A stretch of 32,859 bases of DNA from the NCBI GenBank assembly GCA_017853245.1, contig JAFMJY010000018.1, forward strand, positions 1 to 32,859, written 5' to 3'. The stretch is from Burkholderiales bacterium. Its GTDB lineage: Bacteria > Pseudomonadota > Gammaproteobacteria > Burkholderiales > Usitatibacteraceae. Under the pieces are notes generated by a model, which was given only the letters and a program-made list of their open reading frames with translations, made no database searches and was not told the origin of the DNA. The translations under genes and the position numbers were made by a program. Numbering within the stretch: the stretch's first letter is position 1; each line of letters starts with the position of its first letter. Of this stretch, positions 7,907-22,837 are shown in pieces.

Positions 7907-8767
7907 CTAGACGGCCAGCTCTCCCATCGCCTGCCCCAGCCGAACGGGGCTTCCCGGCGCCCAATCCCGGTTCAATTGGACGGTCCCGCGCGGAAACAAC
8001 AGCACCACCGTGGACCCCACCAGAAAACGGCCCATCTCGGCACCGCGCTCGAGCCGAACGCTCTGCCCGGAGTAGTCCCACGTCTTCACCGCGCCCCGGC
8101 GCGGCGGCGTCACCACGCCATGCCAGCTCGTCATCATGCTGCCGACCACGGTCGCGCCGACGAGCACCAGCGCAAACGGCCCGAAGGACGCCTCGAAGAG
8201 GCACGCTACCCGCTCGTTGCGAGCAAAGAGGTCCGGAACGCCCTGCACTGTTGTGGGATTCACGGAGAAGAGCGCCCCGGGAACGTGCACCATGGCCTTG
8301 AGCTCGCCCGCGCACGGCATGTGAATGCGGTGGTAGTCGCGCGGGCTGAGGTAGATGGTGACGGCATCACCATCGCGGAACGCAGCCGCCAGCGCCTCAT
8401 CTCCCCCCAGAAGCGCGCGGGCGCTGTAGCGATGGCCCTTCACCTGCAGAACGCCATCGCCCTGCATCGGCTCGCATTGGCTCACCGCGCCGTCCACGGG
8501 ACACACCAGTGAAGACGACGCGAGGGGCCGCACGCCTTCGCGAAGGGCGCGGGTGAAAAAATCGTTGAAACACGAGTACGACGCCGGGTCCGCGTTCGCG
8601 GCCTCCGCCATGTTCACGCCATAGCGGCGGATGAACCACGGAATGGCGTGGCGGGTAAAAGGCGCCTTGGAGCGGGCCAACGAGCCCAGCACGGAGGTGA
8701 TCACCGACTTGGGCAGCGCGTATTGCGGGAGGACGCGCAGCCGATCAGCCAGGGGGAAAGCAGTCAT
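7907..8767 (-). CDS. psd: Phosphatidylserine decarboxylase proenzyme
   Basis: A 286-aa inner-membrane-associated enzyme that converts phosphatidylserine to phosphatidylethanolamine, using a pyruvoyl group made by self-cleavage. Visible elements: PVDGAVSQ with Asp92, YLSPRDYHRIHMPC with His146 and His149, FSVNPTT, and the cleavage site GST at 251-253 (Ser252 becomes the pyruvoyl). The residue before GST is Val, giving VGST in place of the usual LGST. This is a mild change and the Gly-Ser bond is kept. Length fits the short group of type I enzymes. Upstream sequence is pyrimidine-rich with no obvious Shine-Dalgarno, but a good -10 lies about 65 bp away. It follows an ABC exporter on the same strand by 110 bp. 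Confidence 0.94.
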   Translation of the reverse strand: MTAFPLADRLRVLPQYALPKSVITSVLGSLARSKAPFTRHAIPWFIRRYGVNMAEAANADPASYSCFNDFFTRALREGVRPLASSSLVCPVDGAVSQCEPMQGDGVLQVKGHRYSARALLGGDEALAAAFRDGDAVTIYLSPRDYHRIHMPCAGELKAMVHVPGALFSVNPTTVQGVPDLFARNERVACLFEASFGPFALVLVGATVVGSMMTSWHGVVTPPRRGAVKTWDYSGQSVRLERGAEMGRFLVGSTVVLLFPRGTVQLNRDWAPGSPVRLGQAMGELAV

Positions 8768-8832
8768 CGACGAGGAAAGGGGCGCGGAAGGAGAAGGGGT
8801 GGCCCGGTGATCGTGGGGCCGCGAGGGGTGCG

Positions 8833-8838
8833 ACTATA
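8833..8838 (-). promoter_or_regulatory. Candidate -10 box for psd
   Basis: On the minus strand the sequence reads TTTATAGT, giving a TATAGT hexamer in the gap between the ABC exporter stop (8878) and the psd start (8767). No good -35 is seen at 16-18 bp. If used, psd would have a leader of roughly 60 nt and its own promoter separate from the exporter. Confidence 0.35.
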
Positions 8839-8877
8839 AACCACGCTCCTTCACGGAAGCGTCTGGCACGACCGGCC

Positions 8878-10785
8878 TCAGGCGCCCGTGGCGCGAAGCG
8901 GCCGACGGTCTGCATCGAACCCTTCCTCCGCCTCGTCCCCCAGGAAGCCGCCGCTCTGGTGAGCCCACAGCCGGGCGTAAATTCCGCCGCCCGCAAGCAG
9001 TTGCGCGTGGGTGCCCTCCTCCACCACGCGCCCGTGGTCCATCACCACGAGGCGATCCATCGCCGCGATGGTGGAGAGCCGGTGTGCGATCGCGACCACC
9101 GTCTTGCCCTCCATCAGCCGGTACAGGCTCGCCTGGATGGCCACTTCCACCTCGCTGTCCAGCGCGCTCGTTGCCTCATCGAGGAGCAGGATGGGCGCGT
9201 CCTTCAGCATCACGCGGGCGATGGCAATCCGCTGCCGCTGGCCGCCGGAGAGCTTCACCCCACGCTCGCCCACATGCGCGTCGTAGCCTCGCCGGCCCCG
9301 CGGGTCCACCAGATCGGGCACGAAGTCATCGGCCTCCGCGCGCCGAGCGGCGGCAATCATCTGCTCGTCAGTGGCATCGGGGCGCCCGTAGACAATGTTC
9401 TCGCGCACGGAGCGGTGCAGCAGCGACGTGTCCTGAGTGACCATGCCGATCTGGGCGCGCAACGACTCCTGTGTAGCGCCGGCGATGTCCTGCCCGTCCA
9501 GGAGAATGCGCCCCGCCTGCACGTCGTAGAGCCGCAGCAGGAGGCTCACCACGGTGCTCTTGCCCGCGCCCGAGCGGCCCACCAGGCCAATCTTCTCCCC
9601 CGGCCGGATGTGCAGGTTCAGGCCATCGACCACCTTTCGGCCATTGGCGTAGGCAAAGCTCACGCCCTCGAATCGCACTTCGCCGCGCGAAACCTGCACG
9701 GGCCGCGCGCCGGGCGGGTCGATCACCGACACCGGCCGCGTCAGGAGCTCGATTCCATCCTGCACGGTGCCGACGCTTTCAAAGAGGGAGGTGAATTCCC
9801 ACATCACCCAGTGCGAGATGCCGTTCAGGCGCATGGCCATCGCCACCGCTGCAGCGACGGCGCCAATGCCCACCTCGCCCCGGGACCAGAACCAGAGCGC
9901 AAGCCCGGCGGTGCCGCCGACGAGAGCAACCGACATCGCCTGGTTGGCCACCTCGAAGCCGCTGACGAGCCGCATCTGGGCATGGGCCGTGCCGAGAAAG
10001 TCCTGCATCGCCGAGCGCGCGTAGCCCGCCTCCCGATTGGCGTGCGAGAAGAGCTTCACGGTGGCGATATTCGTGTAGGCGTCCGTGATGCGCCCGGTCA
10101 TCAGCGAGCGGGCATCGGCCTGGTCCTTTGCCGTGCGCGCCAGGCGAGGCACGAAGTAGCGCAGCGCCAAGAGGTAGAGCGCGAGCCAGCCGAGAAACGG
10201 CGCCATCATCCACGGGCGGAAGCCACCGAGAATGGCGGTCATGGTGGCGAAGTAGATGATCACGTAGACGAGGATGTCGGCGATCACCATCCAGCTGTCG
10301 CGCACGGCGAGCGCCGACTGCATGAGCTTGGTGGCGATGCGGCCCGAGAACTCGTCCTGGTAGAAGCTCATGCTCTGGCCGAGCAGCAGGCGATGGAAGT
10401 TCCATCGCAGGCGCATCGGAAAGTTGGCGGCGAGCGTCTGGTGCTTGAAAAGCGTCTGCAGGGCAGCGAGCCCGATGCTGCCCGCGAGCACGGCCGCCAC
10501 CAACGCGAGCGTCAGCTTCTCCCGCGCCCACAACTCGTTCGCCGGCACCGTGGTGAGCCAGTCCACGAGCTGGCCAAGGAGGGCAAAGAGCACGGCCTCG
10601 AATGCGCCAATGGCTGCCGTGAACAGCGTCATGAGCAACAGGTACGGGCGCATGCCCTCGGTGCAGGCCCAGAGAAAGGCGAGAAAACCCTTGGGCGGCG
10701 GCGGGGGGAGGGCCTCGGGGAATGGGTCGACGAGGCGTTCGAACCAGCGGAACACGGCAAGCGGCCTGCGTGGAAGGGCGCCCAT
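8878..10785 (-). CDS. ABC half-exporter (fused membrane and ATPase domains)
   Basis: A 635-aa type I exporter half-molecule that should work as a dimer. A proline-rich stretch (EALPPPPPKG, about 25-33) precedes a six-helix membrane domain (about 45-345). The ATPase domain has Walker A GRSGAGKST (403-411), a Q-loop at Gln451, signature LSGGQ (512-516), Walker B ILLLDE (532-537) and the switch His568 in IAHRLS. An acidic tail follows residue 615. The closest broad relatives are the ABC multidrug / lipid-type exporters annotated ATP-binding/permease; the substrate cannot be told. It lies upstream of psd on the same strand but with a 110-bp gap, so a shared lipid role is only a possibility. It is divergent from the DUF2934-like gene. 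Confidence 0.92.
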   Translation of the reverse strand: MGALPRRPLAVFRWFERLVDPFPEALPPPPPKGFLAFLWACTEGMRPYLLLMTLFTAAIGAFEAVLFALLGQLVDWLTTVPANELWAREKLTLALVAAVLAGSIGLAALQTLFKHQTLAANFPMRLRWNFHRLLLGQSMSFYQDEFSGRIATKLMQSALAVRDSWMVIADILVYVIIYFATMTAILGGFRPWMMAPFLGWLALYLLALRYFVPRLARTAKDQADARSLMTGRITDAYTNIATVKLFSHANREAGYARSAMQDFLGTAHAQMRLVSGFEVANQAMSVALVGGTAGLALWFWSRGEVGIGAVAAAVAMAMRLNGISHWVMWEFTSLFESVGTVQDGIELLTRPVSVIDPPGARPVQVSRGEVRFEGVSFAYANGRKVVDGLNLHIRPGEKIGLVGRSGAGKSTVVSLLLRLYDVQAGRILLDGQDIAGATQESLRAQIGMVTQDTSLLHRSVRENIVYGRPDATDEQMIAAARRAEADDFVPDLVDPRGRRGYDAHVGERGVKLSGGQRQRIAIARVMLKDAPILLLDEATSALDSEVEVAIQASLYRLMEGKTVVAIAHRLSTIAAMDRLVVMDHGRVVEEGTHAQLLAGGGIYARLWAHQSGGFLGDEAEEGFDADRRPLRATGA

Positions 10786-12570: not shown

Positions 12571-13569
12571 ATGCGCAAGGTCCCCCTCTCGCGTTTCCTG
12601 ATCGACGAGCAATGGCAAAGCCAGGCCCTGCCGGCCGAGCTGCGGCTGCTGGTCGAGGTGGTCGCCCGGGCCGTGAAGGCCATCTCGCTCAACGTGAACA
12701 AGGGGGCGCTTGCCGGCGTGCTGGGCGACGCCGGCACCGGCAACGTGCAGGGCGAGGCGCAGAAGAAGCTCGACGTGATCGCCAACGAAATCCTGCTCGA
12801 GGCAAACGAGTGGGGCGGGCACCTCGCGGCGATGGCTTCCGAGGAAATGGAGAAGCCCCACCCCATCCCGCATCGCATGCCGAAGGGTGAATACCTCCTG
12901 CTGTTCGACCCGCTGGACGGCTCCTCCAACATCGACGTGAACATCGCCGTCGGCACCATCTTCTCCGTGCTGCGCTGCCCCGAGGGCGTCGACCCCGCCG
13001 ACGAGAAGGCCTTCCTGCAGTCGGGAACGAGGCAGGTCTGCGCGGGCTTCGCCGTTTACGGGCCCTCCACCGTGCTGGTGCTGACGGTAGGGCGAGGCGT
13101 GCATTCGTTCACGCTGGATCGCGAGGTCGGCTCCTTCATCCTCACGCGCGAGGACATCCGCATTCCGGAGGACACGAAGGAGTTCGCGATCAACGCCTCC
13201 AACCAGCGCTTCTGGGAGCCGCCGGTGCAGCGCTACGTGTCGGAGCTGATCGCCGGCAAGACGGGCCCGCGCGGCAAGGACTTCAACATGCGATGGGTGG
13301 CCTCGATGGTGGCCGACGTCTACCGCATTCTGATGCGTGGCGGCGTGTTCCTTTATCCGCGCGATACCAAGGACCCGTCGAAGCCCGGACGGCTGCGCCT
13401 GCTCTACGAGGCCAACCCCATGGCCATGATCGTCGAGCAGGCGGGCGGCGCCGCAACCACGGGCCGGGAGCGCATCCTCGACGTGGTTCCCACCGCCCTG
13501 CACCAGCGCGTCGCCGTGATCCTCGGCTCGAGGAACGAGGTCGAGGTGGCCGCGCGCCATCACGGCTAG
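12571..13569 (+). CDS. fbp: Fructose-1,6-bisphosphatase class I
   Basis: A 332-aa cytoplasmic enzyme that hydrolyses fructose 1,6-bisphosphate to fructose 6-phosphate in gluconeogenesis (or the Calvin cycle where present). Metal-site motifs are clear: GEAQKKLDV near 61, EE at 91-92, and [11 protein letters not shown] (112-122) with Asp113 and Asp116. The C-terminal half has [19 protein letters not shown] and [14 protein letters not shown], the substrate-phosphate and metal regions. Length matches proteobacterial class I enzymes. The N-terminal [11 protein letters not shown] is the usual start. Its TAG is directly followed by the GTG of tamA with no spacer, so translation of the outer-membrane gene is probably coupled to it. 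Confidence 0.96.
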
Positions 13570-15339
13570 GTGACGCTCCGCTTCCTTCGCCTCGCCGTCC
13601 TCGCCGCCGTCGCGGCCGGGGCGCTGCCATCACTCGCGGCCGACGAAGAGCCCCGGCCACCCCGGCTCCCCGTCGTCTGGGAGGCGCCCGATGCGCTGCG
13701 GGTGCTCTACGAGCGGCACCTCCCGCCACCGGCCGAAGCGACGCAAGACCGCGGCGCCTGGCGACGGTGGTTTCGCGACGTGCGTGCGCGCGCCCCGGGC
13801 ATCGCTGCTGCCGAGGGCTGGGTCTCCGCCACGGTCGACATCCGGGAGGAACAGGATCGCACTCGGGTCGTGTTGACGCCCGGCTCGCGGGCGGTGGTCG
13901 CGGGCATCGACATTCAATTCCGGGGCGACATCGCCGGCGAAGGCGAGTGGCGCGCGCAGCGCCGGGAAAGCCTGCGCACGGGCTGGCAATTGGCCGCGGG
14001 CCAACCTTTCCGGCAGGCCGCCTGGGACGACGCCAAGGCCCGCGTTCTCGAGGCGCTCACCTCCGACGACTACGCCACCGGGGAAATCGTCGCGAGCGAA
14101 GCCCGGGTGGACGCCAACGCAGCCCAGGCGCGCCTCTCGATCACGCTGGACAGCGGCCCGGCGTTCACGCTGGGCGAGCCCGTGGTCACGGGGATCGAGC
14201 GGTATCCGAGGCACCTGGTGGATCGCCTGCTCGACATCGACCCGGGCGAGCCTTACCGCAGCGACCGCCTACTCGACGTCCAGCGGCGGCTGCAGAGCAC
14301 ACCCTGGTTCGCCAGCGTCACCGTGGACATCGATCGCGATCGCGCCCATCCCGGTCGCGCCCCCGTCCGCATCGCAGTGACCGAGCGCCCCCGAGCCGAT
14401 GTCGGGCTCGCAGCCGGCTACGGAACCGATGCGGGGCCCCGCGGCGAAGTGTCCCTTCGCTACCGCAACGCGCTGGGGCGCGGCTACGACATGCAGTCGG
14501 CGCTGCAGGCCGAGCGGACGCGGCAAATCGGTTACGCCGACTTCTACCTGCCCCCGCGCGGCCCCGGCGAGTCGGTGCTCGGCGGGCAGCCGGCCAGGGA
14601 CAGCGTGGGCGTGCTCGGCGAGCGAACCGCGAACCAGGGCCTCGAAACCCGGCGCGGCGCCGTCGCAGCCCGGCGACTGGTTCCCCTGGGCCCGCTCGAA
14701 TTCGGCGCGGGGCTCGGGTTTCAGGTGGAGCAATCCCTCCCCGATGGCGCTGATCCTCGGGTGAGCCGTGCGCTCACGCCGAACGCCCACGTCACGTGGC
14801 GCACCGTCGACGATGTCCTCAACCCCCGTCGAGGCGGCGTGCTCACCGTCGAGGCCACCGGCGCAGCCCGGTCGGTGTTGTCCGACCAGACGTTCCTGCG
14901 CGGGCGGGCGCAATACCAGCACTGGTTCAGCCTCACGCAGTCCAGCCAGCTGATCTTTCGGGCCGAGGCTGGCGTGGTGTGGGCGGCATCGCGCGAGGGA
15001 ATCCCCGAGGACTTTCTCTTCCGCGCCGGCGGCACGCGCTCGGTGCGGGGCTATGCCTACCAGAGCCTCGGCGTCCGCGAGGGCGACGCGATCGTCGGCG
15101 GACGTTATCTCGCGACGGGAACCGTGGAATACGTGCGCTGGCTTTCTGGCGACTGGGGCGCTGCGCTCTTCTGGGATGCAGGCGACGCCGCGGATCGGCG
15201 AGCCGACCTCACGCTCAATCAAGGCTATGGCGTGGGCGCTCGGTGGCGAACCGCGGCGGGGCCCATTGCCGCGGACCTCGGCTGGTCCGAGCGCGACCGC
15301 AAGGCGCGGCTGAGCCTTTCCGTGTCGGTGGCGTTCTGA
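13570..15339 (+). CDS. tamA: TamA-like BamA-superfamily outer-membrane protein
   Basis: A 589-aa Omp85 protein. A signal peptide (hydrophobic run to about residue 23, cleavage near LAA-DEE) is followed by POTRA-type repeats in the periplasm (about 40-280) and a C-terminal 16-strand barrel. The Omp85 loop-6 motif is VRGY at 492-495 in GGTRSVRGYAY, and the chain ends SVSVAF with the terminal Phe of a barrel beta-signal. TamA inserts some autotransporters and other barrels into the outer membrane and joins TamB to span the periplasm; the pair is also linked to phospholipid transport. The start is a GTG abutting the fbp stop; no better ATG precedes the signal peptide. It overlaps tamB by one base (TGATG). 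Confidence 0.92.
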   Translation: MTLRFLRLAVLAAVAAGALPSLAADEEPRPPRLPVVWEAPDALRVLYERHLPPPAEATQDRGAWRRWFRDVRARAPGIAAAEGWVSATVDIREEQDRTRVVLTPGSRAVVAGIDIQFRGDIAGEGEWRAQRRESLRTGWQLAAGQPFRQAAWDDAKARVLEALTSDDYATGEIVASEARVDANAAQARLSITLDSGPAFTLGEPVVTGIERYPRHLVDRLLDIDPGEPYRSDRLLDVQRRLQSTPWFASVTVDIDRDRAHPGRAPVRIAVTERPRADVGLAAGYGTDAGPRGEVSLRYRNALGRGYDMQSALQAERTRQIGYADFYLPPRGPGESVLGGQPARDSVGVLGERTANQGLETRRGAVAARRLVPLGPLEFGAGLGFQVEQSLPDGADPRVSRALTPNAHVTWRTVDDVLNPRRGGVLTVEATGAARSVLSDQTFLRGRAQYQHWFSLTQSSQLIFRAEAGVVWAASREGIPEDFLFRAGGTRSVRGYAYQSLGVREGDAIVGGRYLATGTVEYVRWLSGDWGAALFWDAGDAADRRADLTLNQGYGVGARWRTAAGPIAADLGWSERDRKARLSLSVSVAF

Positions 15340-18300
15340 TGGCCCATCGCGCGCCCCGCTCATGGCTCCGGCTCACGGCTGCCTGGTCTGGCGCCGCCAT
15401 CGCGCTCGCCGCCGGCGGATCGCTGCTGGGCGCAGCCTGGCTCCTGCTGACCACTCCCGGCGCGCGGTACGTGCTCGAGCGCGTGGCCAGCGCCTCTGGC
15501 GCCAAGGTGGCGGGTGTCGAGGGCCGGCTCATTGGGCCGCTCGCCATCGCCGAATGGCAGCTTGCAACGCCAGCCGCGAGGACCACGATCCGCGATGTGG
15601 CGATCGACTGGTCGCCATCGCAGCTCACCGTGCCCGAGGTTCGGATCGACACCGCATCTGCCCGCGAGGTGGTGGTCGAGACGATATCGTCCAACGAGCC
15701 TCCTCGGCTCCCCGACAGCCTCGTCTCGCCGCTGCGCGTCGTGCTGGCGGTCCGCATCGGTGAGCTGCGCGTGGGAACGCTCGACTCCGGCAAGCCACCC
15801 GTATCGATCCGAAACCTTCAGGCCACCGTACTCGGTGACGCGGGCCAGTGGCAGGTTCGCGACCTCCGCGCCGAGACGCCTGTGGGATCGGCGTCGATCT
15901 CCGGCTCGGTCGGCATGGCCTCACCGTTTCCGGTGGCGGCGGCAGCCACCTGGAGCGGCCTGCGCGATGGCGCTGCCTACCGCATCGACGCACGCGCCAC
16001 CGGAGCCCTCGAGCGGATACGCGTCGTGTTCGAGGGCGCGGACGGTGGCATCACAGGCGGGGGCGAGGCCGACCTGCTCCCGTTTGCCAGGTTACCGCTC
16101 GAGCGCGTCGACGCCAGGATTCGCGGCATCAATCTCGCGGGGTTCGCAAGGGCGCCGCGCACAAGACTGGATGTCGAGGCGCAACTCATCACCGACGCAA
16201 CGGGCACGCTACTCGGCCCCGTCCGTATCGCCAACGGTGAGGCGGGGCCGTGGAATCGCGGCCAACTGCCCATCGCTGCGGCGCACGCGAAGCTCACGGT
16301 CGGCGATGGAATCGTCGCGGCCAGCGGGGTCGACCTTGCCCTTCCCGGGAAGGGACGCGTCCGCGGCAACGCCATCTGGGCGCAAGGCAAACTCGACGCA
16401 CGCCTCGACGTGCGCGATGCCAATCTCGCCGCGCTGCACGCCGACCTGCAGCCAACCGCGCTTGCGGGTGCCCTGGTGGCGCAGGTGACGGCGGAGACTC
16501 AATCATTCACCGTATCGCTCGCGGATCCACGCTTCGCGATCGACGGCGCCGCTACCCTCGCCGCCGGCAAGCTCACCGTTTCGCGCGCGCTGGTGAAATC
16601 CGGCGGCGCGCAAGCCCAGTTGCGCGGCGAGCTGGGCCTCACGGGCGACCAGGCCTTCACCCTGGAAGGCAGCCTCGACAGGGCCAACCCGGCCGCCTTG
16701 GTGTCGACGTGGCCAGCGGGAGAGCTCAATGGCGCCCTCAGCGCGCGAGGGCGTCTCACGTCGGGAACAATCGACGAGGCGACGCTCGCTGTGTCTCGCA
16801 GCCGGCTCGGCAACCAGCCGCTCGAGGGGGATGCGGTCGTCTCGCTCGATGGCAGCCGTCTGCGCCGCGCCGACATCAATGCGACCCTGGGCAGCGCCCG
16901 CCTGGTGACGCGGGGCGCGTTCGGCAAGGCGGGCGACCGATTCGATCTCGTGCTGAAGGCACCGGACATTGCGCCGGCCGCCACGGCCTTCGGGCAAACG
17001 CTCGCGGGCGAGGTGACGCTGGAGGGGCGCCTGGAGGGAACGCTTGCCGAACCCTCGGGCCGCGCGACGTTCAACGCGCGAAAGCTTTCGATGTCCGACG
17101 GGATTCGAATCGAATTGCTGGCCAGTGAAGCCGAGCTGGCTGCCGGACGGGCCGGCGTCATCCGCGCTACCGCGTCGCTCGCTGGCCTCTCTCGCGCCGG
17201 TACGCCGCTCGTCGAGCGCGCGGATCTCGCGCTGGACGGCTCACGCGCATCGCACCGCGCCAGCCTCGACGCGCGCTTCCCAGGCAATCGCAGCAGCCGC
17301 GTCGCCGTCGCGGGCGCCCTGGGCGAGGCGAAGGGCGAGCCGGAGTGGCGTGGCACGGTGGGCACCTTCGACGTCCAGGTGGCCACTCCCGTTTCGCTGG
17401 TGGCTCCCGCGCCCCTCGTGATCTCTCGCCAACTGATCGAGCTCAAGGACGCCACTTTGCGTGGCGAAGCCGGTGAAGCGCAATTGCTGCTCACGCGCTG
17501 GGCGAACGACACGCTCGAGGCCAAGGGCCGCTCGCGCGGGGTCGTGGTGCGCACGATCATGCGCATCCTCGGCCTGGAGGATCGCCTGTCGTCGTCGCTC
17601 GAGCTCGCGGGTGAATGGGATGTGCGCCTCGGCGATCGGGTCGAGGGCTACGCGCTCGTGCGCCGGGAGCGCGGCGACCTGCGCGTGGGCGACCCGCGTC
17701 GCTCGCTCGGCCTGCAGGCCCTTGAATTGCGCGCCGATGCCGTCGAGGGCCGGGTGAAGGCCACGCTCGACGTGCAGTCGCGTCTCGCGGGCACGGTGCG
17801 CGCGGAGGGGTCCGCAGCGGTCGTTCGCAACGGCCTGGCTTGGTCTCTGGACCGGCGGGCCCCGGTGGCCGGCCGCTTCGCGGTCGACATCCCGGATCTC
17901 GCGTGGGCTGCCGCCTGGGTCGGGCCCGATGCCCAGCTCGCGGGGCAGGTTCAGGGGGAGGGAACGCTCGCCGGCACCCTCATCGACCCCGTCTGGTCTG
18001 GCCGGCTCGACGCGACGAAGCTCGCACTGCGCGAGCCTGTTTCCGGCGCGGAGATCGCCGAGGGCAATCTCTCCGTCGCGCTGGACAACCGCGAGGCCCG
18101 CATCGAGCGATTCACGCTCTCGACGCCGTGGAAGCTTGCAGGCAACGCCGCCAAGGCGCTTGCAGGCGTGCGTCGTGCCGAGCCGGGAACGCTCTCCGCG
18201 CAGGGGCGACTGGACCTCGGCACCCAAAAAGGCTCGCTCACGCTGAAGGCGGGCGGCTTCCCCCTCACCCGCCTCGACACGCGCTTTCTCGCCGTCTCGG

Positions 18301-19217
18301 GCGAGGCGCGTGCCGACCTCGATGGGCCCCGCATCGCCATCGCGGGCGAGGTCATCGCCGATGCAGGCTGGTTCGGCATTCCCGCCTCCGCCGCACCCAG
18401 CCTGGGTGACGATGTCGTCATCGATCGGGGCAAGCCCGCGGAACGCTCCCGCCGCCCCGAGCAAGTGCGCCTGGACCTTCGGCTTGGCCTTGGCGATCGG
18501 CTCTACTTCCAGGGCCGCGGTATCGACACGCGCCTCGCCGGAAGCCTGCGCGTGACCGGTGAGCCAGGCGTGAACCTGCGCGCCAATGGAACCATGCGAA
18601 CCGTGGGCGGCACCTATGAGGCCTTCGGCCGCACGCTCACCCTGGAGCGCGGCGCGCTCAACTTCGTGGGGCCGCTCGACAACCCGGGGCTCAACGTCCT
18701 CGCGCTGCGCAAGGGGCTGCCGGTGGAGGCCGGCGTGGAGATCGCCGGCACCGTCAGCCGGCCGCGAGCGAGGCTCGCGTCGATCCCGGAGGTACCCGAG
18801 CCCGACAAGCTGGCCTGGCTCGTGCTCGGCCGCCCCCAGGGGGACGTCTCGGCGAGCGACGCAGCGCTCCTCGTCGGCGCGGCCAACAGCCTGTTCGGCG
18901 GCGACTCGCCCGCCAGCGCCCGAGTCCTCGGTGGGCTGGGGCTCGACGAATTCGGTATCGGGCGCGACAGGGGCAGCGCACTGGGCGCCCTCCCCCAAAG
19001 CACCGTCGCCGGGCGCACGCGCTCGGCAACCCCGGCGGAAGTGTTCACAGTGGGCAAGCGCCTCGGCGACGACCTTACGGTGAGCTACCAGCAAGGGCTC
19101 GCGGAAACGGAAGGGTCGCTGCGCGTGGCGTGGCAACTCACCCGCAGCCTGCAACTGATCCTGCGCGCGGGGTACCTGCCGGGGATCGACGCCGTGTATC
19201 GGTTCAGTTTCAATTGA
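15339..19217 (+). CDS. tamB: TamB-like AsmA-family inter-membrane protein
   Basis: A 1292-aa protein anchored by one N-terminal membrane helix (about residues 12-38), followed by a very long periplasmic region of repetitive beta structure rich in Ala, Gly, Leu and Arg. The last 250 residues form the conserved TamB (DUF490) domain: TMRTVGGTYEAFGRTLTLER, then ALNFVGPLDNPGLNVLALR, PDKLAWLVLGRP, TVGKRLGDDLTVSYQQGL, and a final YRFSFN. TamB-type proteins form a hydrophobic groove bridging inner and outer membranes; they dock on TamA and, with YhdP and YdbH, help move phospholipids outward. The ATG overlaps the tamA TGA in TGATG, so translation is coupled. Sequence open upstream in this frame lies inside tamA and is not coding. 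Length is typical. Confidence 0.93.
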   Translation: MAHRAPRSWLRLTAAWSGAAIALAAGGSLLGAAWLLLTTPGARYVLERVASASGAKVAGVEGRLIGPLAIAEWQLATPAARTTIRDVAIDWSPSQLTVPEVRIDTASAREVVVETISSNEPPRLPDSLVSPLRVVLAVRIGELRVGTLDSGKPPVSIRNLQATVLGDAGQWQVRDLRAETPVGSASISGSVGMASPFPVAAAATWSGLRDGAAYRIDARATGALERIRVVFEGADGGITGGGEADLLPFARLPLERVDARIRGINLAGFARAPRTRLDVEAQLITDATGTLLGPVRIANGEAGPWNRGQLPIAAAHAKLTVGDGIVAASGVDLALPGKGRVRGNAIWAQGKLDARLDVRDANLAALHADLQPTALAGALVAQVTAETQSFTVSLADPRFAIDGAATLAAGKLTVSRALVKSGGAQAQLRGELGLTGDQAFTLEGSLDRANPAALVSTWPAGELNGALSARGRLTSGTIDEATLAVSRSRLGNQPLEGDAVVSLDGSRLRRADINATLGSARLVTRGAFGKAGDRFDLVLKAPDIAPAATAFGQTLAGEVTLEGRLEGTLAEPSGRATFNARKLSMSDGIRIELLASEAELAAGRAGVIRATASLAGLSRAGTPLVERADLALDGSRASHRASLDARFPGNRSSRVAVAGALGEAKGEPEWRGTVGTFDVQVATPVSLVAPAPLVISRQLIELKDATLRGEAGEAQLLLTRWANDTLEAKGRSRGVVVRTIMRILGLEDRLSSSLELAGEWDVRLGDRVEGYALVRRERGDLRVGDPRRSLGLQALELRADAVEGRVKATLDVQSRLAGTVRAEGSAAVVRNGLAWSLDRRAPVAGRFAVDIPDLAWAAAWVGPDAQLAGQVQGEGTLAGTLIDPVWSGRLDATKLALREPVSGAEIAEGNLSVALDNREARIERFTLSTPWKLAGNAAKALAGVRRAEPGTLSAQGRLDLGTQKGSLTLKAGGFPLTRLDTRFLAVSGEARADLDGPRIAIAGEVIADAGWFGIPASAAPSLGDDVVIDRGKPAERSRRPEQVRLDLRLGLGDRLYFQGRGIDTRLAGSLRVTGEPGVNLRANGTMRTVGGTYEAFGRTLTLERGALNFVGPLDNPGLNVLALRKGLPVEAGVEIAGTVSRPRARLASIPEVPEPDKLAWLVLGRPQGDVSASDAALLVGAANSLFGGDSPASARVLGGLGLDEFGIGRDRGSALGALPQSTVAGRTRSATPAEVFTVGKRLGDDLTVSYQQGLAETEGSLRVAWQLTRSLQLILRAGYLPGIDAVYRFSFN

Positions 19218-19252
19218 TGAAGTTCGGCATGCCCCCTTCGCGGAGCCCACAG

Positions 19253-21469
19253 ATGAAAGCGCTTTTTCGAAGCAGTGTCCTGGCGGCGTTGGCTTGCGTG
19301 GCACTGGGAACTCCCCCTCTTTCCACCCACGCGGCGGCCGGGGCGCGGCCCAAGGTCGGCCTGGTCCTGGGCGGCGGCGGCGCCCGGGGCGGCGCGCACC
19401 TCGGGGTACTGGAAGTGCTGGAGGAACTGCGCGTGCCCTTCGATTGCGTCGCGGGAACCAGCATGGGCGCCCTCATGGGCGGCGTGTTCCTGTCGGGCGT
19501 GTCGACGGCGGGCATGCGCAAGGCCATCGGCAATACGGACTGGGACTCGCTCTTCGATGACGGCGCGGGGCGTGAGTACGTCAACCTGCGCCGGAAGGCG
19601 ATCGACGACCGCTTCTTCTCCTCGCTGGAGTTCGGCGTCACCAAGGACGGGCTCGCGTACCGCGAAGGCGCCGTTGCCGGCGAAAAGATCAAGCTCTTCT
19701 TCAATGAGCTCGTCCGCGCCGATCTCGGCGAGCGAAACATTGAGGAGCTGCCTCTGCCGGCGACGCTGATCGCAACCGACATCGGAACAGGAGAGCGGGT
19801 AGCCATGCGATCCGGAAGCCTCACCACGGCCATGCGGGCCAGCATGTCGGTCCCCGGCGCCCTCGCCCCAGTCATGCGGGACGGCCGCAAGCTTGTCGAC
19901 GGCGGGCTCGTGGACAACGTCCCCGTCCGCGAGGTTCGCGAGCGCTGCGGCGCCGAAGTGGTGATTGCCGTGAACGTCGGCTCGCCCCTGTTCAGGCCGG
20001 AAGAGGTCACGGGCATCGTCTCGGTCGTGGGCCAGATGGTGAACCTGCTGGCCGAGCAGAACGTCGCCCAATCGCTCGCCTCACTCGGCCCCAACGACAT
20101 CTACCTTCGGCCGGAGCTGGGCAAGATCACGGCTGCGAGCTTCGAGCGCCAGCTCGAGGCGGCGGACATCGGGAGGCAGGCGGCGCTGGGCATCCGCGAG
20201 CGGTTGGCGGCTCTCTCCGTGGGCGCGGCGGACTACGCGAGATGGCAGTCCCAGCTGCGGCAGGGACGCAACCCGGCGCCACCCGTGATCGACGAAATTC
20301 AGCTCGCGGACACGCGCTTCGTGAACAAGGCGGAGCTGCGAGACAACATTCGCCAGCAGGCTGGCGCGACGCTGGACGCGGCAAGGCTCGCGGAAGACCT
20401 GGTCCTCATCTACAGCCGTGGCGACCTGCAGAACCTCGATTACGCCGTTCTGCGCGAGCGCGACCGCACGGTCCTGCGAATCACCCCAATCGAGAACTCC
20501 TGGGGCCCGGACTACCTGCGATTCGGGCTGAACTTCAGCTCCAACCTCGACGCGGAGTCGGACTACAACCTGCGCGCCCTCTACCGCAGGACCTGGCTCA
20601 ACGCGAACGGGGCCGAATGGCTGGTCACGGCGCAGCTCGGAAGCCAGCAACTCCTGGCGACGGAGTTCTACCAGCCGCTTGACTACCGCCAGCGCTGGTT
20701 CATCCAGCCTTACCTCGACACCGCCAGCCGTAAATTCGGCCTCTACTTCGACGGCGCCCGCATCGCCGATTACCGGACACGGGAATCCCGGGCCGGCGTG
20801 GACATCGGGGCGAACCTCGGCCGGGCAGGCCAGGTGAAGGCGGGTTGGATCGAGCGTCATCAGGCCGCCGACCTCATGACGGGACTCCCGGTGCTCCCCA
20901 ACTCACGGCGCAGCGTCGGCGGCATCCGCGCACAGTTGACGGTCGACACTTACGACCAGGCATTCTTCCCGTCGCGGGGGTATCGCGCCGACCTGAATTA
21001 CTTCGACGCCCTCCGCCATGGGCAGGACGCGTCGGCTTACTCGCTTGCCGAGGGCAGAGTCGGCGGTGCCTGGTCCTCGGGGCCGAGCACGGCGCTGGTC
21101 GCGCTGTCGGCCGGCAAGTCGCTCCGGGGAACGCTGCCCCTGGGGGATGCGTTCACCCTCGGCGGCCAGGGCCGGCTGTCGGCCTTCGCGCCAGGGCAGA
21201 TCATCGGCGGCGATTACGCGCTGGCCACCGTGCAGGCGCAGTACCGCTTGAACAAGCCGGTGCCGCTGCTCGGGCTGCAGGCCCTGGTCGGCGTGACCGC
21301 CGAGCGCGCTCGCATGCGCGACTCGATCACCGAGCCCAATCTCACCGGCAACATCGACTCACTGGGGGTCTATCTCGCCATGAACACCCCACTGGGCCCG
21401 ATCTATCTTGGCGTCGCGGATTCCCGCGGCCGCAAAAGCCGCATCTATTTCTTCCTCGGCTCGCCCTGA
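19253..21469 (+). CDS. Patatin-barrel type Vd autotransporter (PlpD-like phospholipase)
   Basis: A 738-aa secreted or surface lipase with its own translocator. A signal peptide (to about residue 28) precedes a patatin domain: oxyanion loop GGGGARGGAH (40-49), nucleophile elbow GTSMG with Ser70, and DGG with Asp216, giving the Ser-Asp dyad. After about residue 340 comes a single POTRA-like segment (VIDEIQLADTRFVNKAEL), then a beta-barrel of the Omp85-related surface-antigen type. This patatin-POTRA-barrel order defines type Vd autotransporters such as PlpD of Pseudomonas, which has phospholipase A1 activity and similar length. The ATG at 19253 has GGAG 7 bp upstream and starts the signal peptide; another ATG at 19217 overlaps the tamB stop (TGATG) and would add 12 residues. 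The chain ends FFLGSP, without the usual terminal aromatic. Confidence 0.9.
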   Translation: MKALFRSSVLAALACVALGTPPLSTHAAAGARPKVGLVLGGGGARGGAHLGVLEVLEELRVPFDCVAGTSMGALMGGVFLSGVSTAGMRKAIGNTDWDSLFDDGAGREYVNLRRKAIDDRFFSSLEFGVTKDGLAYREGAVAGEKIKLFFNELVRADLGERNIEELPLPATLIATDIGTGERVAMRSGSLTTAMRASMSVPGALAPVMRDGRKLVDGGLVDNVPVREVRERCGAEVVIAVNVGSPLFRPEEVTGIVSVVGQMVNLLAEQNVAQSLASLGPNDIYLRPELGKITAASFERQLEAADIGRQAALGIRERLAALSVGAADYARWQSQLRQGRNPAPPVIDEIQLADTRFVNKAELRDNIRQQAGATLDAARLAEDLVLIYSRGDLQNLDYAVLRERDRTVLRITPIENSWGPDYLRFGLNFSSNLDAESDYNLRALYRRTWLNANGAEWLVTAQLGSQQLLATEFYQPLDYRQRWFIQPYLDTASRKFGLYFDGARIADYRTRESRAGVDIGANLGRAGQVKAGWIERHQAADLMTGLPVLPNSRRSVGGIRAQLTVDTYDQAFFPSRGYRADLNYFDALRHGQDASAYSLAEGRVGGAWSSGPSTALVALSAGKSLRGTLPLGDAFTLGGQGRLSAFAPGQIIGGDYALATVQAQYRLNKPVPLLGLQALVGVTAERARMRDSITEPNLTGNIDSLGVYLAMNTPLGPIYLGVADSRGRKSRIYFFLGSP

Positions 21470-21475
21470 CCGGGC

Positions 21476-22837
21476 TCAGGCGGCTACGAGCCGCCAGGCC
21501 AGCCCCGCAGCCGCACACGCGGCGATCACCTCGATCACCCCTCGCTTGTAGCGGAAGAGCGCCAGGGCTGCGCCGAGGGCAATGACGGCGGAGGGCGCGT
21601 CGAAGCGCCCCGACAGCCCATCGGGCCACAGCACGTGGTAGCCGAAGAACACGGCGAGGTTCACGATCACGCCGACCACCGCGCCGGTGATGGCGGTGAG
21701 CGGCGCCGTGAGCCGCAGCTCGCCGTGCGTCGACTCCACCGCCGGGCCGCCGGCGAGGATGAAGAGAAACGACGGCAGGAACGTGACCCAGGTGACCAGC
21801 ACCGCCGCGAGCACGCCACCAAGGAAGAGCGCGTCTGGCCCGAGCGCGGCCTTGAGATAGCCGCCGACGAACGCCACGAACACCACCACCATGATGAGCG
21901 GCCCGGGCGTGGTTTCACCGAGCGCGAGGCCATCGATCATCTGCGCGGCGGTGAGCCAGCCGTAGTGCTCCACCGCGCCCTGGTACACGTATGGCAGCAC
22001 GGCGTACGCGCCGCCGACCGTGAGCAGCGCCGCCTTGGTGAAGAACCATCCCATCTGCGTGAGCGTGTGGTCCCAACCGAAGGCTGCGGCCAGCAGCCCC
22101 ATCGGGATCACCCACAGCATGAGCCCCGCGACGATCACCGCCACCAGATGCGACAAGCGGAAACGCGCATGCGCCGGCACGGGCGTGTCGTCGTCGATCA
22201 ACGCCGGGCCGTAGGATTTTTTTGCCGAGCCGTGGCCGCCGCCGATCGCGAACGTCTCCGGCGACAGGCGCCCGCCCACAAATCCGACCACCGCGGCGGT
22301 GAGGATGATGGCGGGGAACGGAACGTCCAGCGCGAAGATGGCCACGAAGGATGCCGCTGCAATCGACAAGAGCCATGCGTTCTTGAGGGCGCGGGAGCCG
22401 ATGCGGTACGCCGCCTGCACGACGATCGCCGTGACCGCGGGCTTGATGCCGTAGAAGAGCCCCGCCACCACCGGCACGTCACCGTAAGCAAGGTAGACCC
22501 AGGACAGTGCGATGAGGATGAAGAGCGAAGGCAGCACGAAGAGCCCGCCGGAGACGATGCCGCCCCAGGTGCGGTGCATGAGCCAGCCCAGGTAAGTGGC
22601 GAGCTGCTGCGCCTCGGGGCCGGGCAGCACCATGCAGTAGTTCAGCGCGTGCAGGAAGCGGCGCTCGGAAATCCAGCGACGCCGCTCCACCAGCTCCTGA
22701 TGCATGATCGCGATCTGCCCGGCGGGGCCGCCGAAGCTGATGAAGCCCAGCTTGAGCCAGAAGCGGAATGCCTCGCCGAGCGAGACGGGCTCGGGGCGCG
22801 GCAAGTCGGATGGGGAATGGGTCTTCAACTCGCTCAC
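21476..22837 (-). CDS. chrA: Chromate transporter, ChrA family
   Basis: A 453-aa, two-domain inner-membrane protein of the CHR family. Each half carries the conserved pattern: [20 protein letters not shown] in the N-terminal half and [20 protein letters not shown] in the second, followed by [14 protein letters not shown]. About 10-12 membrane helices are visible, with a hydrophilic linker near residues 215-230. ChrA proteins export chromate and lower its cytoplasmic level; many members are assigned by homology only. The start is GTG at 22837; no in-frame ATG lies close by. It converges on the patatin gene (6 bp) and is divergent from the RND efflux genes. No chrB or chrR regulator or reductase is present in the window. 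Confidence 0.92.
21479..21495. terminator. Candidate bidirectional hairpin between patatin gene and chrA
   Basis: GGCGGCT (21479-21485), a 3-nt loop, and AGCCGCC (21489-21495) form a perfect 7-bp GC stem. It begins 10 bp after the patatin stop and covers the last codons of chrA on the other strand. There is no T-run on either side, so efficiency as an intrinsic terminator is doubtful. Confidence 0.35.

What the first reader, a model, noticed from the sequence alone, without database searches (positions are those of the whole stretch)
13570..21469. tamA-tamB directly followed by a patatin type Vd autotransporter
Seen: tamA and tamB overlap (TGATG), and the patatin-POTRA-barrel gene follows with a start 36 bp after, or overlapping, the tamB stop. 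Known: TAM helps insert certain autotransporters and TamB-like proteins carry phospholipids across the periplasm; PlpD-like proteins are phospholipases A1. Inference: the lipase may be a dedicated TAM client, or lipid delivery and outer-membrane phospholipid removal may be linked in one operon.
Basis: partly seen in the sequence, partly recalled or inferred. Interest (0 to 1): 0.6.

Follow-up and report, generated by a model that had tools for sequence, protein, structure and literature searches.

The report
Phospholipase gene moved behind tamAB
In this uncultured bacterium an ordinary outer-membrane phospholipase gene sits right behind the two TAM genes, but in its relatives it lies in another outer-membrane-building operon, so the pairing looks like a one-off relocation and not a dedicated TAM partnership.

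Summary
In detail: fbp, tamA, tamB and a patatin-POTRA-barrel gene lie head to tail at 12571-21469. The last gene most likely starts at 19253, 35 nt after the tamB stop, and belongs to the known PlpD (PL-Omp85) family. The interpretation mostly fails. The tamB link was seen in 1 of 14 family genomes that have both genes and in 0 of 31 class genomes that have both. PL-Omp85 also occurs in near-complete genomes with no detectable TamB. In 12 other genomes of the family the orthologue sits in the bamA-lpxD-fabZ-lpxA-lpxB-rnhB-trmH-yhhQ region (8 with the bamA-to-gene stretch seen, 4 with one flank only). The window's genome keeps that locus on one contig, but yhhQ and the phospholipase gene are missing between trmH and the GDSL esterase gene. 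The gene was therefore most likely relocated on this lineage from the BAM/lipid A locus to behind tamB. Published work on PlpD puts the patatin domain in the periplasm and ties it to outer-membrane phospholipid turnover, so a 'surface lipase delivered by TAM' is unlikely. Shared control of phospholipid delivery (TamB) and removal (PL-Omp85) remains possible but untested.

The parts
12571..13569 (+). fbp, fructose-1,6-bisphosphatase, first gene of the head-to-tail string
   Evidence: Pfam FBPase; fbp-tamA order also in L043 (G002)
13570..15339 (+). tamA, Omp85-family outer-membrane protein
   Evidence: Pfam Omp85 and POTRA; starts directly after the fbp stop
15339..19217 (+). tamB, AsmA-like inner-membrane/periplasmic subunit of TAM
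   Evidence: Pfam PF04357 E 7.3e-46; C-terminus matches solved TamB chains; TGATG overlap with tamA
19218..19252 (+). 35-nt spacer between the tamB stop and the preferred start of the patatin gene; GGAG at 19242-19245
   Evidence: sequence
19253..21469 (+). PL-Omp85 (PlpD-family) gene: signal peptide (by eye), patatin domain, POTRA-like segment, 16-strand barrel; alternative start 19217
   Evidence: Pfam; PlpD 5fqu E 4.7e-60; model mean pLDDT 79.2; Foldseek 5fya
19352..20212 (+). patatin phospholipase domain with GGGGARG (19370), GTSMG (19454) and DGGLVDN (19898) motifs
20270..20494 (+). single POTRA-like segment
   Evidence: secondary structure of the model; no Pfam POTRA match at E 0.001
20513..21457 (+). 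Omp85-type barrel, 16 long strands in the model by my count
21476..22837 (-). chrA-like chromate transporter, convergent right flank; not beside the PL-Omp85 gene in the fetched congener loci
   Evidence: Pfam

Best explanation
The gene behind tamB is an intact PL-Omp85 phospholipase of the PlpD type. On this lineage it left its ancestral place in the bamA-lpx region and came to lie behind tamB, where it can be read as the fourth gene of an fbp-tamA-tamB transcript. The protein most likely works as a homodimer in the outer membrane, with its patatin domain in the periplasm, hydrolysing phospholipids of the inner leaflet and so tuning outer-membrane lipid content. The relocation changes which operon drives it (BAM/lipid A to TAM), not what it does. 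Shown here: gene order, orthology, empty ancestral site, intact domains and motifs. From the literature on PlpD: periplasmic patatin domain, dimer, effect on phospholipid levels. Inferred: co-transcription with tamAB, and that the same biochemistry holds in this protein. Whether the new place was kept by selection or is neutral is left open (first and third rivals, which are sub-readings and do not exclude this one).
For: Orthology: the window protein groups with the seven congener proteins (97/97 support for the eight; its place as sister of the other seven is weaker, 85/75; 62-67% identity). Ancestral place: bamA-lpx-rnhB-trmH-yhhQ-PL-Omp85 seen in 8 other family genomes, including single-contig G010, G012 and G014, and one agreeing flank in 4 more. 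Empty site: contig C196 of the window's genome runs bamA-lpxD-fabZ-lpxA-lpxB-rnhB-trmH then, 36 nt on, the convergent GDSL autotransporter gene, ppsR and the start of ppsA, which runs off the contig end; yhhQ was not found in the genome. One barrel-type patatin gene was found in the genome. In five congeners tamB is followed within 2.2 kb by a DUF302-like gene (named by eye) and not by PL-Omp85. PlpD biology: Discussion of PMC11116518; the solved PlpD patatin domain matches at 4.7e-60.
Against: The genome is a draft of 202 contigs (98.7% complete, 2.5% contaminated by the tool's figures); read coverage over either junction could not be checked. Relocation and 'duplication followed by loss of the old copy' cannot be told apart. 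The empty answer for yhhQ is from a draft. No expression data. The window protein is only about 35% identical to PlpD in the patatin domain.
Confidence: 0.75

Rival explanations
1. Functional coupling: placing PL-Omp85 under tamAB control was kept by selection because TamB brings phospholipid to the outer membrane and PL-Omp85 removes the excess, so dosage of the two is matched.
For: TamB is reported to take part in glycerophospholipid transport to the outer membrane (PMC8912898 abstract); a plpD deletion strain is reported to have more of many phospholipids (PMC11116518 Discussion). In this clade the gene sits in or near outer-membrane building loci several times: bamA-lpx, lpxC (second copies in G012, G014), tamAB (window), tamBA about 3 kb away (L038), against 0 of 60 PL-Omp85 loci fetched outside the clade.
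Against: One genome only for direct tamB linkage; the enrichment was noticed after the fact and rests on few independent moves; at L038 the genes are divergent with a recombinase and an OmpA-family gene between; 7 of the 8 clade members outside the family show no such neighbour; 10 of the 60 control loci have under 5 kb on one side.
Confidence: 0.25
2. Dedicated TAM client: TamA/TamB insert this barrel or help deliver its patatin domain, and the genes travel together for that reason.
For: Adjacency in the window; PL-Omp85 is an Omp85-type barrel and TAM has been proposed to assemble a subset of outer-membrane proteins (PMC11341756, search listing with start of abstract only).
Against: Linkage in 1 of 14 family genomes with both genes and 0 of 31 class genomes with both; PL-Omp85 without detectable TamB in 11 of 42 class genomes and in G008, G011, G013, G015, G017, G055, though these carry relatives of at most 39% identity, not the orthologue. 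PMC11116518 finds the PlpD patatin domain in the periplasm, so there would be no passenger to deliver.
Confidence: 0.05
3. Neutral rearrangement: the gene landed behind tamB by chance and is merely tolerated there.
For: Linkage seen in a single genome; the right flank (chrA onward) is also arranged differently from congeners in the fetched DNA; the genome is the smallest of its genus sample (2.75 Mb against 3.2-3.9 Mb drafts).
Against: The gene is intact after long divergence and packed tightly in the same direction, as expected if it still needs expression from the upstream operon.
Confidence: 0.6
4. Assembly artefact joining two unrelated contigs.
For: Draft assembly of 202 contigs; no other assembly of the species could be looked at.
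Against: The ancestral site is closed on another contig, so two independent joins agree; no repeat of 12 nt or more from the junction on the same strand of the window, and G+C and third-position G+C of the gene fit the neighbours; the join falls exactly between two intact genes.
Confidence: 0.05

Closest known systems
PlpD of Pseudomonas aeruginosa (PL-Omp85; formerly the type Vd archetype)
   Same: Patatin domain, one POTRA-like segment and 16-strand Omp85 barrel; catalytic motifs; patatin domain aligns to 5fqu/5fya at 34-36% identity
   Different: Gene lies behind tamB; PMC11116518 holds no occurrence of 'operon' or 'genomic context' in its main text, and where plpD itself lies was not looked up
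TAM (TamA-TamB)
   Same: tamA and tamB adjacent and overlapping, Pfam matches to both
   Different: No third TAM gene in this position came up in the searches made
PldA/OMPLA of E. coli
   Same: Outer-membrane phospholipase with a role in lipid balance and LpxC control (PMC5874903 abstract); dimer (PMC11116518 Discussion)
   Different: A different protein family (recalled); acts on outer-leaflet lipids, while PL-Omp85 is thought to act on the inner leaflet (PMC11116518 Discussion)

Membership tests
PL-Omp85 (PlpD family) | N-terminal patatin domain with Gly-rich loop, GxSxG and DGG motifs | tested here: met
   Pfam; motifs; strongly conserved in the 15-row alignment, (two rows lack the N-terminal part as fetched)
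PL-Omp85 (PlpD family) | Single POTRA between patatin domain and barrel | tested here: inconclusive
   Strand-helix-helix-strand-strand segment 348-414 in the model, but no Pfam POTRA match at E 0.001
PL-Omp85 (PlpD family) | 16-strand Omp85 barrel | tested here: met
   Pfam Omp85; 16 long strands in model (my count); Foldseek hits to BamA and TamA
PL-Omp85 (PlpD family) | Homodimer and phospholipase A1 activity | not testable with these tools
   needs purified protein
Type Vd autotransporter (secreted patatin domain) | Patatin domain crosses the outer membrane | not testable with these tools
   PMC11116518 Discussion argues against it for PlpD
TAM | tamA Omp85 gene next to a tamB gene with PF04357 domain | tested here: met
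Dedicated TAM client | Recurrent linkage with tamAB | tested here: not met
   1 of 14 and 0 of 31; one loose, divergent case about 3 kb away in L038
Dedicated TAM client | Found only where TAM is found | tested here: not met
   11 of 42 class genomes with PL-Omp85 lack a PF04357 match; six more by PF04357 and by TamB protein; tested on relatives, as the orthologue itself has a narrow range
Dedicated TAM client | Assembly depends on TamA/TamB | not testable with these tools
   needs deletion strains

The most novel reading that the evidence does not exclude
In this clade PL-Omp85 is a PldA-like regulator of outer-membrane lipid balance that keeps company with outer-membrane building operons: bamA-lpx by ancestry, lpxC in second copies, tamAB in the window. 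In the window's lineage, fusing it to tamAB puts phospholipid delivery and phospholipid removal under one promoter.
Probability: 0.2. Interest if true: 0.6.

Novelty: new member of a known kind. Interest (0 to 1): 0.33.

Why it matters
The physiological role of PL-Omp85 proteins is open. The strongest genomic lead found here is not TAM but the BAM/lipid A locus: in this family the gene lies downstream of bamA-lpxD-fabZ-lpxA-lpxB, and two genomes have a second copy just upstream of lpxC. That fits the 2024 proposal that PL-Omp85 acts in outer-membrane lipid homeostasis, and it makes a testable prediction about co-regulation with lipid A synthesis. The tamAB placement is a natural variant of that wiring.

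Tried and rejected
Dedicated TAM client: rejected on distribution. Recent horizontal acquisition of the gene: not supported; the tree places it with congeners and its composition fits. Misassembly: judged unlikely because of the closed ancestral site. A repeat or shared footprint at the junction: none seen in a short-word comparison with eight loci and within the window. Tracing the right flank: chrA orthologues exist in five congeners (57-62% identity), but in the fetched DNA around them and 20 kb further along the tamB contig of G002 the only other window genes matched were ABC-ATPase paralogues of 24-32% identity, so the kind of rearrangement stays open. G018 and G020 hold only fragments of the orthologue; their PL-Omp85 surroundings were not fetched. 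Gene names rnhB, fabZ, lpxA, lpxD, ppsA and DUF302 are my readings of sequence; yhhQ (Vut_1), trmH (SpoU), ppsR (Kinase-PPPase), lpxB, lpxC, bamA and the GDSL autotransporter were checked against Pfam.
Full report
What is there. The window is one whole contig (C197, 32,859 bases) of a 2.75-Mb draft genome of 202 contigs. It holds fbp (12571-13569), tamA (13570-15339), tamB (15339-19217) and a patatin-barrel gene ending at 21469, all on the + strand and packed closely. tamA follows the fbp stop without a base between them; tamA and tamB share TGATG. The patatin gene has two possible ATG starts, 19217 (overlapping the tamB stop) and 19253. I prefer 19253: it has GGAG seven bases upstream and opens with a signal-peptide-like stretch. 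The congener proteins also have only a short leader before the conserved RPKVGLVLGGGGARG block.

What the gene is. Pfam gives Patatin and Omp85. The patatin part matches the solved P. aeruginosa PlpD domain (5fqu, E 4.7e-60). An AlphaFold2 model from 15 aligned sequences (mean pLDDT 79.2, pTM 0.69) shows a patatin domain, a POTRA-like segment and, by my count, 16 long barrel strands. Foldseek ranks PlpD first (TM 0.92 by target length), then BamA and TamA. The Gly-rich loop, GTSMG and DGG motifs are present. It is a complete member of the PlpD or PL-Omp85 family. The other patatin gene found in the genome (contig C183) is in a short open frame of 342 codons with no barrel match.

Is the tamB linkage recurrent? 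In the window's family (28 genomes), 27 have a PL-Omp85 match at E <= 1e-70 and 15 have a TamB match; 14 have both. Only G000, the window's genome, has them together; elsewhere they lie on different contigs or, in the single-contig genomes G010, G012 and G014, more than 150 kb apart. Different contigs of a draft do not strictly exclude closeness, but in five congeners (G002, G003, G004, G006, G007) the DNA behind tamB was read and carries other genes, among them a DUF302-like gene within 2.2 kb. In a class sample of 370 genomes of at least 90% completeness, with at most two candidates scored per genome, there were 44 matches at E <= 1e-70 in 43 genomes, counting G000. Of the other 42 genomes, 31 have TamB. 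On a shared contig the nearest is about 69 kb away (G207); most others are on different contigs, and the DNA fetched around all 43 matches shows no tamA or tamB. Eleven of the 42 have PL-Omp85 and no TamB match. G008, G011, G013, G015, G017 and G055 (99-100% complete) also lack TamB by profile and by the window's TamB protein (G019, G023, G027 and G034 matched in the same search). These TAM-less genomes carry relatives of at most 39% identity, not the direct orthologue.

Where the gene belongs. In eight other family genomes (G002, G004, G007, G009, G010, G012, G014, G016) the orthologue is in the order bamA, lpxD, fabZ, lpxA, lpxB, rnhB, trmH, yhhQ, PL-Omp85; in four more (G001, G003, G005, G006) a contig end leaves only one flank, which agrees. 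Of the ten loci with DNA beyond the gene, ppsR follows in 10, ppsA in 9 and a GDSL-esterase autotransporter in 7 (Pfam checks on examples). In a tree of 48 proteins the window's protein groups with the seven congener proteins (97/97), with weaker support (85/75) for its being sister to them. Two other genera of the family (G009; G010, G012, G014, G016) have the bamA-lpx arrangement, so that arrangement is taken as ancestral. In the window's genome, contig C196 carries bamA to trmH and then, 36 nt on, the convergent GDSL gene, ppsR and the start of ppsA, which runs off the contig end. PL-Omp85 and yhhQ are absent there, and yhhQ was not found elsewhere in the genome; the same yhhQ query finds its counterpart in congener loci. 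The simplest history is that the gene moved from the bamA-lpx locus to behind tamB, or was copied there and then lost from the old place.

A wider pattern. G012 and G014 (single-contig genomes) have a second copy of the same clade upstream of lpxC: about 40 nt away in G014, about 0.6 kb in G012. A soil MAG (L038, JAGTRU010000021.1) has the gene about 3 kb from tamBA, divergent, with a recombinase and an OmpA-family gene between. In contrast none of 60 PL-Omp85 loci outside this clade (43 from the class sample, 17 from order and family; 24 of them placed outside by the tree, the rest by low identity) shows tamA, tamB, bamA, lpxA, lpxB, lpxC, lpxD or fabZ in the fetched 3-20 kb. Ten of these loci have under 5 kb on one side, and the profiles used were built from this family, so distant bamA or lpx genes could be missed. 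A direct check by the Pfam LpxB model (58 of 58 genomes have it) finds it within 5 kb of PL-Omp85 only in G002, G010, G012 and G014; in the 53 others apart from G000 it lies on another contig or more than 50 kb away. Of the eight clade members outside the family in the tree, seven (L029-L032, L034, L035, L041) show none of these neighbours and L038 shows tamBA. The pattern was noticed after the fact and rests on few independent moves, so I treat it as a lead.

How it most likely works. The Discussion of the 2024 PlpD paper (PMC11116518) reports that the patatin domain is periplasmic, that PlpD is a dimer, and that many phospholipids rise when plpD is deleted; the authors propose a role in outer-membrane lipid homeostasis. 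I transfer that to the window's protein by family membership (inference). TamB is reported to take part in glycerophospholipid transport to the outer membrane (PMC8912898, abstract), so joint expression could balance delivery and removal. E. coli PldA, another outer-membrane phospholipase, raises LpxC levels through its fatty-acid products (PMC5874903, abstract), which is why the lpx and lpxC neighbourhoods are suggestive. None of this coupling was tested here.

In print? Searches (titles and starts of abstracts seen) and term look-ups in PMC11116518, PMC11014939 and PMC4104836 (passages) showed no report of a PlpD-type gene next to tamAB or at the end of the bamA-lpx locus. Most subscription papers are not in that library.

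Verdict. What remains of interest is a clean case of a PL-Omp85 gene moving between two outer-membrane building loci, and the ancestral bamA-lpx linkage as a lead on PL-Omp85 function.

Noticed in passing
window 7907-10785: A phosphatidylserine decarboxylase gene (7907-8767, -) lies next to an ABC transporter gene with membrane and ATPase domains (8878-10785, -), 1.8-4.7 kb upstream of fbp-tamAB: another phospholipid-related gene close to TAM.
   Followed up: no
L054:6207-8102; L070:16573-18471: A GDSL-esterase type Va autotransporter gene lies convergent beside the ancestral PL-Omp85 site in 7 of 10 readable family loci and at the closed site in the window's genome, so two lipolytic beta-barrel proteins of different types are neighbours there.
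   Followed up: partly
L060:8821-12069; L061:7231-11119: Second PL-Omp85 copies in two single-contig genomes (G014, G012) lie upstream of lpxC (about 40 nt and 0.6 kb), and are closer in the tree to the window genus than to the same genomes' bamA-linked copies.
   Followed up: partly
L038:1534-12106: In soil MAG CTSoil_122 the PL-Omp85 gene lies about 3 kb from tamBA, divergent, with a SpecificRecomb-family gene and an OmpA-family gene between.
   Followed up: partly
L070:16520-16580: The closed ancestral site in the window's genome carries a G+C-rich inverted repeat between the convergent trmH and GDSL genes that could serve both as a terminator (read by eye).
   Followed up: no
G008, G011, G013, G015, G017: Five genomes of 99-100% completeness of one genus in this family have no detectable TamB although three draft members of that genus do (G019, G023, G027), suggesting loss of TAM within a genus.
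   Followed up: partly
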